DNA of 11,708 nucleotides from assembly GCA_900754435.1 (NCBI GenBank), contig CAAECT010000090.1, positions 1 through 11,708 of the forward strand, written 5' to 3'. Below the pieces are notes generated by a model. That model ran no database searches, had not been told where the DNA came from, and saw nothing but the letters and a program-made list of their open reading frames with translations. Each line of letters starts with the position of its first letter. The stretch's first letter is position 1. Both the position numbers and the translations under genes were made by a program. The stretch is from an uncultured Collinsella sp. (GTDB lineage Bacteria; Actinomycetota; Coriobacteriia; Coriobacteriales; Coriobacteriaceae). Shown here piece by piece: positions 1,603 to 10,326 of this stretch.

Positions 1603-1614
1603 TTAGGTACCTAA
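1603..1614. repeat. 12-bp perfect palindrome TTAGGTACCTAA, copy 1
   Basis: This palindrome overlaps the stop codon (1611-1613) of the small membrane protein gene. An identical copy, also preceded by G on the plus strand, lies at 5107-5118 in front of jag. The two sites bracket the parB-parA-rsmG-jag block. No function is assigned. It could be an operator half-pair, or coincidence. Confidence 0.6.
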
Positions 1615-1865
1615 TAGCCTACATTTTCCCATTGGTTACTAACCCAACCTTGATTAATCTTGGGATTCTTCGTTACCTGAGCCGTACGCATGGCAACATC
1701 TTCTGTCATAACATCCATTTTCTTCTTGGATGTATCGACAATATCTTGCGCACTACGAAGCAAACGACCTCGAAGTTCATCGTCTGTCGCGATCTTATAG
1801 CCAGCAAAGGCACCAGCCGCGACAGTCGTCGCCAATGCAATCGCAGTTAAAATCCTATTCCTCAT
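1611..1865 (-). CDS. Small membrane-anchored protein of unknown function, downstream of parB
   Basis: An 84-residue protein with a basic N-terminus (MRNR), one hydrophobic Ala-rich segment at about 5-23 that looks like a membrane anchor or uncleaved signal, and a polar remainder rich in Lys, Asp and Gln. The tail ends with aromatic residues (GWVSNQWENVGY). The ATG at 1865 was chosen because AAGGAGG (1871-1877) sits 5 nt before it; a TTG six codons upstream lacks a ribosome site. It begins inside the last codons of parB (11-bp overlap), so it is translationally coupled to parB, and its stop lies just before a terminator. The layout, a short glycine/alanine anchor followed by a polar charged tail, recalls small YtxH-like proteins, but I see no diagnostic motif. 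Its position suggests a link to chromosome segregation or simply to the envelope; function is unknown. Confidence 0.8.
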   Translation of the reverse strand: MRNRILTAIALATTVAAGAFAGYKIATDDELRGRLLRSAQDIVDTSKKKMDVMTEDVAMRTAQVTKNPKINQGWVSNQWENVGY

Positions 1866-2760
1866 CTTGGCCTCCTTGATCAAACTGAATCATTTCGCTA
1901 AGAATACGAGAGAGCTCTTCCTCGTCTTTAAACTCAATCTCAATCTTATTCTTTCCACGCGAGCTCTTAACACGCACGCTGGTATTAAAAACCTGACGAA
2001 GCACGCGGGCAGCCTTTTTAAAAGACTGAGGCGTTGCAGGCCTCGGCGTCTTAGGTGTCTCTCCGGCAGAAAACAACGGAGCAAGATTTTCTGTCGCTCT
2101 TACGGAAAGGCCCTCTGCAACAACCTTCTCTGCAAGTCGAATTCGAGCGTCCTCATAGGGAACTGCAAGAATCGCACGTGCATGACCAGCAGTAAGTTTG
2201 CCCTCAAAAATCATCTGCTGAACAACTTCAGGGAGATCGAGAAGGCGCAGCGAGTTTGTAATTGCAGAGCGTGACTTGCTGACTGCCTTCGACAATGCCT
2301 CCTGGGTCATACCGCTGGCATCGATAAGCTGGCGATAGCCCTTAGCCTCTTCGACGGGATTCAGATCAGAACGCTGAAGGTTTTCGATCAGAGCAAGAGC
2401 CAGCATCTCTTCATCATTAACATCTTTAATGATGACAGGCAGCTCCTCAAGACCAGCAAGCTTTGACGCTTGGTAACGACGCTCACCAGCGATGATCTCA
2501 TAGCCGTTTCCATGCTTGCGAACCAAAAGCGGCTGCAAGACGCCATGTTCTTGAATTGATTCGCTCAACTCACGAAGTTCAGTTTCGTTAAAGTGAATTC
2601 GCGGCTGATTAGGGTTGGGAACGATATCCTCAATAGGTAGTTTTGTTTCAGATGCGGCATTCGAAGCCGATGCAGCCGAACCACCGGTCTCATACTCGGC
2701 CTCTGAGACCAAAGCATTGAGTCCACGTCCCAATCCGCCACGTTTCTTTACACTAGGCAC
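1855..2760 (-). CDS. parB: Chromosome-partitioning protein ParB (Spo0J), CTP-dependent parS clamp
   Basis: ParB binds parS sites, then switches on CTP to a sliding clamp that spreads along DNA, recruits SMC and stimulates ParA. The 301-residue length is typical. In order: a basic N-terminal peptide KRGGLGRGLNAL (6-17), the part that in this family triggers the ParA ATPase; a linker to about 40; the CTP-binding N-domain with QPRIHF (52-57), GERRYQA (92-98) and ENLQR (126-130), NPVEEA (134-139); the parS-reading helix-turn-helix domain from about 150 (MTQEALSKAVSKSRSAITNS) through HAR at 193-195; a Thr/Pro linker near 234-246; and a C-terminal dimerisation segment at 247-295. The start overlaps the end of parA by 8 bp, so the two are coupled. 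The gene is clearly lower in GC than dnaA and dnaN. Confidence 0.97.
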   Translation of the reverse strand: MPSVKKRGGLGRGLNALVSEAEYETGGSAASASNAASETKLPIEDIVPNPNQPRIHFNETELRELSESIQEHGVLQPLLVRKHGNGYEIIAGERRYQASKLAGLEELPVIIKDVNDEEMLALALIENLQRSDLNPVEEAKGYRQLIDASGMTQEALSKAVSKSRSAITNSLRLLDLPEVVQQMIFEGKLTAGHARAILAVPYEDARIRLAEKVVAEGLSVRATENLAPLFSAGETPKTPRPATPQSFKKAARVLRQVFNTSVRVKSSRGKNKIEIEFKDEEELSRILSEMIQFDQGGQDEE

Positions 2761-6515: not shown

Positions 6516-6650
6516 CTAGACAGTGAGACGCTTGCGGCCCTTGGCGCGACGACGGGCGAGCACGGCACGCCCACCCTTAGTGGCCATACGGGCACGGAAG
6601 CCATGGGTCTTGGCACGCTTACGCTTATTAGGCTGATACGTACGCTTCAT
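6516..6650 (-). CDS. rpmH: 50S ribosomal protein L34
   Basis: A 44-residue, very basic large-subunit protein, beginning [18 protein letters not shown] and ending GRKRLTV, with the family pattern RTYQP near the start and HGFRARM in the middle. The ATG at 6650 is chosen over upstream reading because the family always starts at this point and AGGAGG (6659-6664) lies 8 nt before it. It is the first gene of the operon, placed next to the origin, as in most bacteria. Confidence 0.97.
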
Positions 6651-6722: not shown

Positions 6723-6752
6723 ATTGTAGGGAAATCAATGTTCAAATGTCAA
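6723..6752 (-). promoter_or_regulatory. Housekeeping-type promoter of the rpmH-rnpA-yidD-yidC-jag operon
   Basis: On the minus strand a perfect -35 TTGACA (6747-6752) and a -10 TACAAT (6723-6728) are separated by 18 bp. Transcription should begin near 6715, giving a leader of about 65 nt before rpmH. It is the best promoter in the window. Confidence 0.88.
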
Positions 6753-6828: not shown

Positions 6829-6933
6829 TTTTCACGATATTTCATCGAGTTTTCAACAGGTCATGTTGGCAATGTTGAGAACTTTTCGTCCGTTTTCCAA
6901 AGTTTTCAACAGGTTTTGAAAAGTTGTCGAAAG
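6829..6933 (+). other. oriC: Origin region, left part: phased TTTTC-type DnaA-box-like arrays
   Basis: The 345-bp gap between rpmH and the ATPase gene carries the rpmH promoter on its left and, on its right, two runs of 10-11 bp units. Run A has units starting at 6829, 6840 and 6850. Run B has units starting at 6883, 6893, 6903, 6914 and 6924. Most begin TTTTC or TTTC and end in G. TTTTCAACAGG occurs in each run, at 6850 and 6903, within an exact 13-bp repeat GTTTTCAACAGGT. The canonical TTATCCACA is absent; TTTTCAACA matches it at 7 of 9 positions. Position next to dnaA and rpmH makes an origin role likely; DnaA binding itself is inferred. A weak plus-strand promoter candidate (ATGAGA at 6934-6939, TACTAT at 6957-6962, spacer 17) could drive the next gene. 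Confidence 0.7.
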
Positions 6934-6995: not shown

Positions 6996-8348
6996 ATGTC
7001 TGACGACTTTTACACCATGGTCGATTCCGGAGACCCGGCACCCGACAACGAGCACATCACCGGCGTGCGCGAAGAGCGTGAGGAAGGCGAGCAGACGACC
7101 ACGCAGGCGCCAAAAGCCATGTACGCCGCGCGTATCGCCGTCTATGACGACATGCTGTCGACACCGCGTGTGATCGTCATTGATCCGCAGGATGTCCGTA
7201 CGTATTTGGAAGAGACGACCAACACCGTCTACCAGTGCATGAAAGAACAAGGTGGTCATATCTCGCTCATGGTCATCCGCGAGATTGTCGAAAACTTTAT
7301 CCACGCGCACTTTGCCGAGCCCATCATCTCGATTCTGGACGGCGGAGACACCATCCGCTTTGCCGATCAAGGACCAGGCATCGACGACAAGGAGCGCGCT
7401 TTCGACTTTGGCGTTACCAGCGCAAACAGCAAGATGAAGCGCTATATCCGTGGGACCGGAGCAGGGTTTCCCATGGTGCAGGAGTATTTGGAAAACGCCG
7501 GCGGTGCCGTATCCATCGAGGACAACATGGGCAACGGCACCGTGGTTACGGTAAGCCTGAACCCTAAACGCGTGCAGGAAATCGAGCGTGCCGGCGGACG
7601 CGGTGCTGCCGTGCGGCCCGAGACGGAGCAGCCCACATATCCCCTGCCGGGAGCTTTTGCGCAGCAGCCCATGGCAACGCAGCAGATGCAGCCCCCCGTG
7701 GGGCAGATACAGCAGCCCGGAATGCTTCCTACACAAGAGCCCCAGGCGACATCGATGTCGATGCCGCCAAACATGCCAGAGGCCGTACCGCTGGCGGATC
7801 AGGATGCAGCAGCAATGCAGCAGGCGACGGGCGCACCGGGTGGCCAGCAAATGGGCCATCAGCCGTACCAACAGGGATATCCATATCAGCAGATGCCGCC
7901 GCTGGGGTACGGCCAGCAGTTCCCACAGCAGTACCAGCAGGGATATCAGCAGCCGTACCAGCAGATGCCGCAGCAGCAGTACAACCCCTGGGCCCAGCAG
8001 ATGCCTCCGCAGCCTTACCAACAGTGGCCTCAAAGTTTTCAACAGCAAATGCCGCCGATGCAGAGTTCTCAACAACCAGCAGCTCAAATGATGTATCCTA
8101 ATGCAGCAAATCAGTATGCGCAGCCACAACCGGACGTGTTCGTAAGCGATCGCGGCAACGCCGCGCTGAGCTATCTGGCGCAAAATCAAGCGTGCGGTGC
8201 AACCGATCTGGCGAGGGCGTTTGGAAACTCGGCCCCCACTTGGTCACGCACGCTCAATGACTTGGCGCAGGCCGGCTTGGTCATCAAGCATGGCCAGAAA
8301 TACCATCTGACCGAACTCGGCGCCGCTCGCGTGCGAGCTCAGAGCTAA
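6996..8348 (+). CDS. GHKL-type ATPase with Gln/Pro-rich linker and C-terminal winged-helix domain, upstream of dnaA
   Basis: I recognise the domains but not a named gene. Of its 450 residues, 1-55 are acidic and probably disordered. About 60-190 form a histidine-kinase/HSP90-like ATPase fold: N-box EIVEN (96-100), G1 box DQGPG (124-128) and G2 loop RGTGAGF (152-158) followed by GNGTVVTV, so ATP binding looks intact. No phosphoacceptor histidine domain, sensor region or membrane segment is visible, so it is not a standard sensor kinase; it is closer in layout to stand-alone GHKL switches such as SpoIIAB. Residues 210-378 are low complexity (YQQ, PQQ, MPP repeats). Residues 385-447 resemble a winged helix, with ATDLARAFGNSAPTWSRTL as the likely recognition part. 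The ribosome site is weak; a TGA at 6978-6980 rules out a longer start, and ATG 7017 is an alternative. Its stop is 15 nt before dnaA, so the two are probably co-transcribed. A regulator of origin firing or dnaA expression is a guess from position. Confidence 0.85.
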   Translation: MSDDFYTMVDSGDPAPDNEHITGVREEREEGEQTTTQAPKAMYAARIAVYDDMLSTPRVIVIDPQDVRTYLEETTNTVYQCMKEQGGHISLMVIREIVENFIHAHFAEPIISILDGGDTIRFADQGPGIDDKERAFDFGVTSANSKMKRYIRGTGAGFPMVQEYLENAGGAVSIEDNMGNGTVVTVSLNPKRVQEIERAGGRGAAVRPETEQPTYPLPGAFAQQPMATQQMQPPVGQIQQPGMLPTQEPQATSMSMPPNMPEAVPLADQDAAAMQQATGAPGGQQMGHQPYQQGYPYQQMPPLGYGQQFPQQYQQGYQQPYQQMPQQQYNPWAQQMPPQPYQQWPQSFQQQMPPMQSSQQPAAQMMYPNAANQYAQPQPDVFVSDRGNAALSYLAQNQACGATDLARAFGNSAPTWSRTLNDLAQAGLVIKHGQKYHLTELGAARVRAQS

Positions 8349-8363
8349 AGAACGGGAGAGACA

Positions 8364-10088
8364 GTGGACGAGGAAGCAAGCATCATCCTGGGGGATGCCA
8401 TCGCCTTTTGCCAGCGCGACGGCCAAGATGCACGCCTCATCAACATGCTGGGGCAATCGCGCGCCATAAGCCTGACCGAAGATACGCTCACGATCGAGGC
8501 CCCCTCGCGCTTTGCCATCGCGCAGCTCAAAAAGCATCAGCCGACTATTGAGGCCTATCTGGAAGAAATCGCCTTTGCACCGATTGCTCTCGACATCGTG
8601 GCACCGCAAGGCGCCGCGACGGAATCCGCTGCCGCCACGGCGCCCGCCACGGCTCCCGCTGCTTCCCCGGCGGTGCCGGCCTCCGCAGGCGATGTGCCGA
8701 CAATCGAGCACCAGCACAGCGATGTTTCCCGTGAAACAATGGCACCGTTGACGAGCGCGGCGGCGACGTCAACGAACGCACCCGTCACGCACATGCCCAT
8801 CGCTCACGACGCAGCGGCGGGCGCGGATTCGGGCATTGCAATCAAGAACACGCTCTCGGCCGACGATTTTCGTCGCATGATGAACCAGATGAAGGGCGGA
8901 GCGCCGACTAAATCCACGCAAGCTGCGGCCCCCGCTTCACCCATGCCAGCACCGACCGTGCCGGCCGAGCAGAATACGGATGGAGCCCCGCTCGCCGCGA
9001 ACTCAAAATTTACCTTTGAGAACTTTGTCTACGGCCCCGAGAACAGCCATGCCTATCGCTCGGCACTCAAGTTTGCCGCCCTCGCGGACGAGCGCGGCAC
9101 ATGCACATCACTGTTCATCTACGGCAAATCGGGCCTGGGCAAGACGCACCTGCTGCTTGCCATCAAAAACGAGCTCGCCGAGAAGTCGCCCGAGATCAAG
9201 GTCAAGTATGCCAACTCCCAGGCATATCTGGACGACCTGATGACCGAGTTCGACCGTCAAAAGAAGAGCAACGCCCCCATCATGCAGGCATACCACGGCG
9301 TGGACGTGCTCATCATCGATGACATCCAAAACATCATCGGCAAGCGCGCGAGCGTGGACTACTTTTTCCAGCTCATGGACGAGTTCATCCGCAACAACAA
9401 GAAGGTCGTCATCGCGGCAGACCGCGCCCCCAAGGACCTAAGCATGGACGAGCGTCTGACCAGCCGCTTCAACGCCGGAATGCTCTGCCTGGTCGCAGAG
9501 CCCAGCTACGAGATGAAATACAAGATCTTGCAGCGCTATTACGAGAACACCATCGTCGCCGCTCCCGAGGCGGGCGACGACTCACTGCTGGCGGCCTATG
9601 GGGGCGACGGCGGGCACCTGACCGACGAGCACTTTAAACACATGGCCGAGGTCTCGGGCACCAACATCCGCGAACTCGAGAGCTTTTGCGAGCGCTGCGC
9701 CGGCGAGGCGGGCGACCGCGAGCGCGAGGGCGGAGAGCTCACCTTTGACGATATCGACGCCATCGCCAGCCAGTACTTCGACACATCGGCCAAAAAGATC
9801 AACGTCCAGACGGTTCAGTCCGTCATCGAAGAGCAGTACGGCGTGACACACGAGGAGCTCATCGGCCCGCGTCGCAACGCCAATATCGCCAAAGCACGCC
9901 ATATCGCTATCTACCTGGCCATCGAGATGTGCGAAATGACGACCACGGCGGTGGGCGCCGAATTTGGCAACCGCAACCACTCGACCGTCAGCACGAGCTA
10001 CAAAAAGGTCCAGAAGATGATCCAGGAAGACCGCACCGTCACCGAAGACCTCAAGTCGCTGCGCGATAAAATTACACTGCGCTCGTAG
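8364..10088 (+). CDS. dnaA: Chromosomal replication initiator DnaA with divergent domains I and IV
   Basis: AAA+ protein that binds origin boxes and melts DNA. At 574 residues it is longer than usual because of a linker (about 82-212) rich in Ala and Pro. Domain I (1-80) is poorly conserved and has no Trp. The AAA+ domain starts near FTFENFVYGPEN (217-228): Walker A GKSGLGKT (254-261), Walker B VLIIDDIQ (315-322), the ERLTSRF arginine-finger box (364-370), and sensor 2 in NIRELES (434-440). Domain IV (about 482-574) carries the DNA-reading signature as GNRNHSTV (535-542), where E. coli has GGRDHTTV; Asn538 replaces the base-contacting Asp433 and Ser540 replaces Thr435. His511-region and Thr528 also differ (Q408 to H, P423 to T by my alignment), while the equivalents of Arg399 and Arg407 remain. 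GTG start, with GGGAG (8354-8358) before it. It follows the ATPase gene by 15 nt. Confidence 0.95.
   Translation: MDEEASIILGDAIAFCQRDGQDARLINMLGQSRAISLTEDTLTIEAPSRFAIAQLKKHQPTIEAYLEEIAFAPIALDIVAPQGAATESAAATAPATAPAASPAVPASAGDVPTIEHQHSDVSRETMAPLTSAAATSTNAPVTHMPIAHDAAAGADSGIAIKNTLSADDFRRMMNQMKGGAPTKSTQAAAPASPMPAPTVPAEQNTDGAPLAANSKFTFENFVYGPENSHAYRSALKFAALADERGTCTSLFIYGKSGLGKTHLLLAIKNELAEKSPEIKVKYANSQAYLDDLMTEFDRQKKSNAPIMQAYHGVDVLIIDDIQNIIGKRASVDYFFQLMDEFIRNNKKVVIAADRAPKDLSMDERLTSRFNAGMLCLVAEPSYEMKYKILQRYYENTIVAAPEAGDDSLLAAYGGDGGHLTDEHFKHMAEVSGTNIRELESFCERCAGEAGDREREGGELTFDDIDAIASQYFDTSAKKINVQTVQSVIEEQYGVTHEELIGPRRNANIAKARHIAIYLAIEMCEMTTTAVGAEFGNRNHSTVSTSYKKVQKMIQEDRTVTEDLKSLRDKITLRS
8723..8738. 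promoter_or_regulatory. parS-like site inside dnaA
   Basis: TGTTTCCCGTGAAACA matches the parS consensus at 15 of 16 positions (A to C at position 7). It encodes residues 120-125 (DVSRET) in the variable linker of DnaA, where protein sequence is under weak constraint. It would place a ParB loading site about 5 kb from the main cluster, on the other side of the origin. Confidence 0.6.
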
Positions 10089-10100
10089 GGAAATAGAGAC

Positions 10101-10124
10101 ACCTGTTGAAAACTTGTCGAAACC
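10101..10124 (-). other. oriC: Origin region, right part: paired DnaA-box-like units after dnaA
   Basis: Just 12 bp after the dnaA stop, the minus strand carries TTTCGACAAG followed directly by TTTTCAACAGG. The 13-mer at 10101-10113 is the exact reverse complement of GTTTTCAACAGGT seen twice left of the ATPase gene. The plus-strand 17-mer at 10106-10122 matches 6916-6932 at 16 positions. A further weak match, TTTTCCACG on the minus strand, lies at 10186-10194. Confidence 0.6.
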
Positions 10125-10258
10125 ACGGGCATAAGGTGTCTAAAACCCAACCCGCGGTGATGAAAAGTTTTGCGCAGGTTTTGAACGTGGAAAACCACCC
10201 CTGTTACACACAGGCTGCTGTCGATTCTCTTTCTGGGTCTGACCTGCGTCTTTGGGAG

Positions 10259-10326
10259 TAATCAACAGTTTCGTCAGTGCTATTACTATTATTAAGATAT
10301 TTATATCTATAGAAAGGTATTAAAAG
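10259..10326 (+). other. oriC: Probable DNA-unwinding element with DnaA-trio repeats
   Basis: On the plus strand a box-like TAATCAACA (10259-10267, 7 of 9 to TTATCCACA) is followed by 12 bp of mixed sequence and then CTATTACTATTATTA (10280-10294), five uninterrupted (C/T)TA triplets. Read on the other strand these are 3'-(G/A)AT-5', the DnaA-trio motif established in Bacillus subtilis. The DNA from 10280 to the dnaN start has 8 G or C in 47 bases. Order, orientation and location between dnaA and dnaN match the B. subtilis unwinding system. No convincing dnaN promoter was seen here, so dnaN may be read from upstream as well. The middle of the dnaA-dnaN gap (10125-10258) holds only a small inverted repeat CCTGT/ACAGG at 10200-10214. 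Confidence 0.68.

What the first reader, a model, noticed from the sequence alone, without database searches (positions are those of the whole stretch)
6996..8348. GHKL ATPase fused to a winged helix, encoded inside the origin and 15 nt before dnaA
Seen: intact N, G1 and G2 ATP-binding boxes, no phosphoacceptor or sensor domain, a 170-residue Gln/Pro-rich linker, and a C-terminal winged-helix-like domain, all lying between the left box arrays and dnaA. Known: GHKL switches such as SpoIIAB act through ATP-dependent partner binding, and winged helices bind DNA. Inference: this could be an ATP-responsive regulator of dnaA transcription or of origin firing. I know of no described replication regulator with this architecture.
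Basis: partly seen in the sequence, partly recalled or inferred. Interest (0 to 1): 0.8.

Follow-up and report, generated by a model that had tools for sequence, protein, structure and literature searches.

The report
DnaA-locked ATPase–winged-helix protein family
The gene just before the replication-starter gene dnaA encodes an ATP-binding protein with a DNA-binding tail, and it stays next to dnaA across several deep branches of actinobacteria, which marks it as an undescribed candidate control protein for dnaA or chromosome replication.

Summary
ORF 6996-8348 (450 aa) ends 15 nt before dnaA and has an intact GHKL (HATPase_c) domain, no recognised phosphoacceptor or sensor domain, a low-confidence Gln/Pro linker and a MarR-like winged helix. 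The window is Collinsella aerofaciens-like. In three genomes, possibly one inherited event, gene and dnaA are inverted as one block. 264 of 296 class genomes have a match, one each. ATP-site residues are near-invariant; dN/dS of the GHKL domain is 0.008-0.015 in three comparisons. The long linker is not a family feature. Best reading: an ATP-responsive DNA-binding regulator of the dnaA operon or origin. Linkage, architecture and constraint are shown; DNA binding, partner and regulation are inferred. A conserved upstream dyad looked like its operator, but also stands before dnaA in 5 loci without the gene. Ten literature searches found no description.

The parts
6996..8348 (+). GHKL ATPase-winged helix gene, 450 aa, first gene before dnaA
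7128..7595 (+). GHKL ATPase domain, residues about 45-200 (N-terminal beta hairpin and helix, then N, G1, F, G2 boxes)
7281..7307 (+). N box E96-A104; N100 and H103 124 of 124, E96 121 of 124 in the alignment of 124 rows
7365..7379 (+). G1 box D124-x-G-x-G128; D124, G126, G128 124 of 124
7452..7466 (+). G2 box G153-x-G-x-G157; 124, 123 and 124 of 124
7596..8138 (+). Gln/Pro-rich linker, residues about 201-381, low model confidence, evolving faster than the two folded domains, absent from compact relatives
8139..8345 (+). C-terminal MarR-like winged helix, residues 382-450
8364..10088 (+). dnaA (GTG start)
6516..6650 (-). rpmH, divergent neighbour (named by eye, recalled; not scanned against a library)
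6850..6858 (+). DnaA-box-like site TTTTCAACA
6903..6933 (.). DnaA-box triad TTTTCAACA-N2-TTTTGAAAA-N2-TGTCGAAAG; taken by eye as the counterpart of the 9-N2/3-9'-N3-9' element of other lineages
8036..8044 (+). perfect DnaA-box-like site inside the linker-coding DNA
10089..10326 (.). dnaA-dnaN gap with 4 box-like sites and a DnaA-trio-like, A+T-rich stretch at 10280-10326

Best explanation
The gene encodes a dedicated ATP-responsive DNA-binding regulator of DnaA. The SpoIIAB/histidine-kinase-like GHKL domain binds (and probably hydrolyses) ATP and switches the protein's shape or oligomeric state. The MarR-like winged helix then binds DNA in the DnaA-box-rich region upstream of its own gene. There it tunes transcription of the gene-dnaA operon, and possibly DnaA assembly at the flanking origin. 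SHOWN: predicted architecture, intact ATP-site residues, strong purifying selection on both folded domains, a single match per genome, unbroken pairing with dnaA. INFERRED: DNA binding, ATP switching, co-transcription, the target and the sign of regulation.
Against: No binding, expression or mutant data exist here. The conserved upstream dyad is also present in 5 of the 19 gene-less loci from the wider phylum, so no operator specific to this protein was found. The gene is dispensable in some lineages: 6 class loci have dnaA with upstream DNA and no gene, and of 20 examined phylum genomes without a match (of 239) 19 have dnaA and none of these loci shows the gene. One member, L075, seems to lose the winged-helix frame. 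Gene order alone can persist for expression reasons.
Confidence: 0.5

Rival explanations
1. Direct initiation factor: the protein binds DnaA (or acts at the helicase step) and origin DNA, and ATP controls that partnership, as SpoIIAB holds its sigma factor; dnaA transcription is not its main target.
Against: Nothing here shows a DnaA-binding surface. Collinsella-like G001 also has a DciA match over cut-off, so a helicase-loading gap is not needed. The MarR-like tail fits a transcription factor as well.
Confidence: 0.25
2. Serine/threonine kinase of the RsbW/SpoIIAB kind that phosphorylates a partner, with the winged helix for localisation.
For: Fold and partial profile similarity (TIGR01925 spIIAB in 23 of 63 members at E<=0.001); E96 conserved in 121 of 124.
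Against: I recognised no STAS-domain or sigma-factor gene among the window's ORFs, by eye. Several histidine-kinase models match more members than spIIAB does, up to 35 of 63.
Confidence: 0.12
3. The regulator's targets are elsewhere; it sits before dnaA only because the origin-proximal operon gives suitable dosage or expression.
For: No specific operator found; yidC-, rnpA- and rpmH-like genes are also conserved neighbours and are not known, from recall, as dnaA regulators.
Against: Pairing survives inversion that changed the flanks, and none of the 128 testable genome handles shows the gene away from dnaA.
Confidence: 0.13

Closest known systems
DIP2311 of Corynebacterium diphtheriae (PDB 3lmm); recalled as a COG2865/AlbA_2-type predicted regulator
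   Different: 12-14% identity; in that whole-length alignment the rmsd is 12.7, so domain placement differs; about 190-230 residues precede the matched part in DIP2311, recalled as an AlbA_2 domain; no AlbA_2 match in this protein; its neighbourhood was not looked at.
SpoIIAB / RsbW anti-sigma factor kinases
   Different: They have no winged helix and are not next to dnaA (both recalled); the N box here is N-x-I-H-A.
Two-component sensor histidine kinases (HATPase_c)
   Same: HATPase_c profile over cut-off; most of Foldseek's listed best hits are kinase catalytic domains.
   Different: No dimerisation/phosphoacceptor, sensor or receiver domain was found; a winged helix instead.
MarR-family winged-helix regulators
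   Different: The window protein scores below the MarR cut-offs; fused to an ATPase.
Known DnaA regulators (Hda, YabA, SeqA, DiaA, SirA, Soj; recalled)
   Same: Proposed role only.
   Different: None is recalled as a GHKL-winged helix fusion encoded just before dnaA.

Membership tests
GHKL ATPases (HATPase_c, PF02518) | Profile match over cut-off with N, G1 and G2 boxes | tested here: met
   42.5 bits against 26.4; 63 of 63 members of A3 match at E<=0.001; residues near-invariant
GHKL ATPases (HATPase_c, PF02518) | ATP binding or hydrolysis | not testable with these tools
   needs purified protein
Sensor histidine kinases | DHp domain with phosphoacceptor histidine | tested here: not met
   no HisKA-type family among the 16 listed at E<=1
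SpoIIAB/RsbW anti-sigma factors | Fold of the kinase | tested here: met
SpoIIAB/RsbW anti-sigma factors | Match to the family model over cut-off | tested here: inconclusive
   TIGR01925 at E<=0.001 in 23 of 63 members, cut-off not shown there; for the window protein only the best 25 of 43 families were shown and spIIAB is not among them
SpoIIAB/RsbW anti-sigma factors | Binds a sigma factor, phosphorylates an anti-anti-sigma factor | not testable with these tools
   -
COG2865 / AlbA_2-GHKL-winged helix proteins (DIP2311-like; family features recalled) | GHKL domain followed by a winged helix | tested here: met
COG2865 / AlbA_2-GHKL-winged helix proteins (DIP2311-like; family features recalled) | N-terminal AlbA_2 domain | tested here: not met
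   no AlbA_2 match at E<=1 for the window protein, nor among the 21 families matched by A3 members at E<=0.001
MarR-type winged helix | Fold | tested here: met
MarR-type winged helix | Sequence match over the family cut-off | tested here: not met
   window protein: MarR_2 21.2 bits against 27, MarR 17.9 against 24.6; 12 of 63 relatives match MarR at E<=0.001
Replication-initiation or dnaA regulator | Conserved linkage with dnaA | tested here: met
   77 of 77 and 51 of 51 testable genome handles
Replication-initiation or dnaA regulator | Binds origin or dnaA promoter DNA, or DnaA | not testable with these tools
   -

The most novel reading that the evidence does not exclude
This is the founding sight of a dedicated DnaA-control protein present in several deep lineages of the actinobacterial phylum. 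It is a sensorless GHKL ATPase with a winged helix that reads ATP (or the ATP/ADP ratio) and sets dnaA expression or origin firing. It may be ancestral and later lost in the lineages that lack it: a kind of control for which no described counterpart was found.
Probability: 0.4. Interest if true: 0.9.

Novelty: new variant of a known kind. Interest (0 to 1): 0.72.

Why it matters
How DnaA is controlled outside the model bacteria is largely open. A gene found once per genome that stays with dnaA across deep lineages, even through inversion, with an ATP-binding site under very strong selection, is a concrete and testable candidate for coupling energy state to replication.

Tried and rejected
(1) Operator hunt: box(+)-N2/3-box(-) dyads occur in 38 of 103 upstream regions and in none of 5 shuffled sets. 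In 12 genomes picked because they have it, TTTCCACA-N2-TGTGGAAA (<=1 mismatch) occurs once per genome, 12 of 12 upstream of the gene placed; the reversed control pattern occurs once, in G384. I first took this for the winged helix's operator. Of 26 gene-less loci scanned, one (L191) holds no upstream DNA; 0 of the 6 other class loci but 5 of the 19 wider-phylum loci (L199, L207, L208, L212, L213) show the same dyad before dnaA. Rejected as specific; DnaA is the simpler binder.

(2) Replacement of the helicase loader DciA: 2 of 14 genomes had a DciA match over cut-off, G001 among them; the profile may miss divergent copies, so this is not informative.

(3) Link with an unusual DnaA domain I: the window's DnaA has no DnaA_N match, but several gene-bearing relatives have conventional-looking N-termini by eye; no association claimed.

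(4) Viral homologues: with one peptide pattern, 36 stretches matched and none encodes a relative.

(5) Genomes without the gene: of 32 class misses, 20 were named. With the profile, 16 of these 20 gave only weak partial GHKL matches (best E per genome 4.6e-10 to 8.1e-6) and 4 none. Of the 20, 13 had no DnaA match either and so say nothing; 7 had dnaA, one of them (L191) on a contig that starts inside dnaA. The other 12 were not examined. Of 239 phylum genomes without a match, only the 20 named were examined.

(6) A weak match beside dnaA in L199 is an iron-dependent repressor on the other strand.

(7) Conserved N-terminal F[YF] in 39 of 124 rows: not pursued.

(8) Structure searches rank by similarity; absence of other families there means nothing. 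Literature: ten searches listed no paper that appears to describe this gene; only listings were seen, plus passages of PMC5109545. Most subscription papers are not held.

(9) Homologues outside the phylum were not tested; one hit carries the name Firmicutes bacterium (MAG).

Full report

HOW FAR IT GOES. With the N-terminal 205 residues, 264 of 296 genomes drawn from the class have one match each at E<=1e-10. With a profile of 24 compact members (A2), 157 of 396 genomes drawn from the phylum match at E<=1e-12. Of these, 38 are handles already drawn for the class. That the other 119 lie outside the class is inferred from this handle reuse, since kinship is not printed. Many listed matches run over both domains (about positions 30-280 of 282). 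Source names among the 120 listed protein hits include Coriobacteriia, Anaerosomatales, Candidatus Aquicultor and Actinomycetota MAGs, and one Firmicutes bacterium.

LINKAGE TO dnaA. Loci came from hits taken by rank or spread of E-value. Counting each genome handle once, 79 class and 57 other handles were examined, of the 264 and 119 with matches. In 77 of 77 and 51 of 51 that hold enough DNA, dnaA lies downstream on the same strand. Eight contigs end too soon (L091, L103, L120, L130, L132, L133, L136, L143). Five of these eight end 6-23 nt after the gene, and the same contigs open with dnaA. rpmH is divergent in 144 of the 145 loci in which it was found. In L075, L196 (G054) and L197 (G164) the gene and dnaA are inverted together, so that dnaN faces away on one side and rpmH follows dnaA on the other. 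All three fall in one DnaA clade of 26, so this may be a single inherited inversion.

ABSENCES. Twenty of the 32 class genomes without a hit were looked at: 13 have no DnaA match either; 7 have dnaA, and the 6 with upstream DNA have no gene there. Of 20 phylum genomes examined without a match (239 in all), 19 have dnaA, and none of these 19 loci shows the gene (rechecked with a wider profile; one, L214, holds only 882 nt upstream). A DnaA tree of 103 sequences (77 labelled with, 26 without, L191 among the latter although its upstream DNA is not held) puts gene-bearing loci in several deep clades, 15 of the gene-less ones in one weakly supported clade (0.457) and the rest scattered. This fits an old gene with losses; rooting was by midpoint and several supports are low.

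CONSERVATION. In an alignment of 124 non-redundant rows, N100, H103, D124, G126, G128, G139, G153, G157 and G181 are 124 of 124, and E96 is 121 of 124. E96 sits where gyrase, MutL and Hsp90 carry their catalytic glutamate (recalled). dN/dS against L017, L020 and L046 is 0.008-0.015 in the GHKL domain, 0.05-0.08 in the winged helix, 0.18-0.22 in the linker and 0.08-0.40 in residues 1-44; a fourth comparison, L016, is close and gave 0.023, 0.107 and 0.246 for the first three. Many relatives have only about 250-330 aa (automatic starts), so the long linker is an add-on. In A2, row L075 loses the winged-helix pattern at its C-terminus, by frameshift or sequencing error.

THE ORIGIN AROUND IT. Upstream regions carry 3.9 DnaA boxes on average against 0.3 in shuffles (103 regions). 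The dnaA-dnaN gaps carry DnaA-trio-like words, for example TAGTAATA in 14 of 47 regions against at most 7 for any 8-mer in one shuffled set. In the window, boxes stand at 6850-6922 and within 10104-10267, and an A+T-rich trio-like stretch at 10280-10326. The origin thus looks bipartite with this gene and dnaA between its parts; that is an inference from sequence, and the GC skew of the window shows no sharp switch.

MECHANISM. Most likely this is an ATP-responsive DNA-binding regulator of its own operon and hence of DnaA (0.5). Rivals are a DnaA or origin partner (0.25), a serine kinase (0.12) and targets elsewhere (0.13). The attempt to find a specific operator failed: the dyad that is unique in 12 preselected genomes is absent from 6 of 6 gene-less class loci with upstream DNA, but stands before dnaA in 5 of 19 gene-less loci of the wider phylum.

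NOVELTY. The domains, and by structure the GHKL-then-winged-helix order (DIP2311), are known. A sensorless version, found once per genome and locked to dnaA across lineages, did not turn up in ten literature searches, of which I saw listings and passages of one paper (PMC5109545); that library lacks most subscription papers. I file it as a new variant of a known kind; a shown regulatory role in replication would make it more.

Noticed in passing
8036-8044: A perfect box TTTTCAACA inside the linker-coding DNA; one perfect box is also present in the gene of 8 of 8 relatives checked (L001, L007, L016-L020, L046), though the linker falls to about 70% identity in L017, L020 and L046. In synonymous shuffles of the window gene one or more perfect boxes appear in 70 of 500, and 6 or more boxes with at most one mismatch in 14 of 500.
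   Followed up: partly
6903-6933; upstream regions of L081-L166: A box triad 9-N2/3-9'-N3-9' before the gene in several lineages, with the dyad part also before dnaA in 5 gene-less loci: an apparently old origin element.
   Followed up: partly
8364-8600: DnaA of the window has no DnaA_N (domain I) match among the Pfam families listed, and scores 308.9 bits, under the NCBIfam DnaA cut-off of 343.9; a long Ala/Pro-rich stretch follows.
   Followed up: partly
6723-6752 (-): Near-perfect sigma-70 promoter-like site TTGACA-18-TACAAT pointing to rpmH (0.8 promoter-like sites expected in the region), visibly conserved in the Collinsella group alignment.
   Followed up: no
L075, L196, L197: Inversion of the gene-dnaA block between rpmH and dnaN in three genomes of one DnaA clade, perhaps one event.
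   Followed up: partly
7286-7305: Two one-mismatch boxes (7286, 7297) fall in the DNA of the N box; codons for the conserved N-F-I-H can by themselves spell TTATCCAC.
   Followed up: no
residues 1-14 of the family: An aromatic F[YF] within the first 14 residues in 39 of 124 members, against 7 in residues 15-28 (automatic starts): a possible short contact motif.
   Followed up: no
1611-1883 (-): Small ORF (90 aa) with a membrane-anchor-like N-terminus beside parB (by eye); not identified.
   Followed up: no
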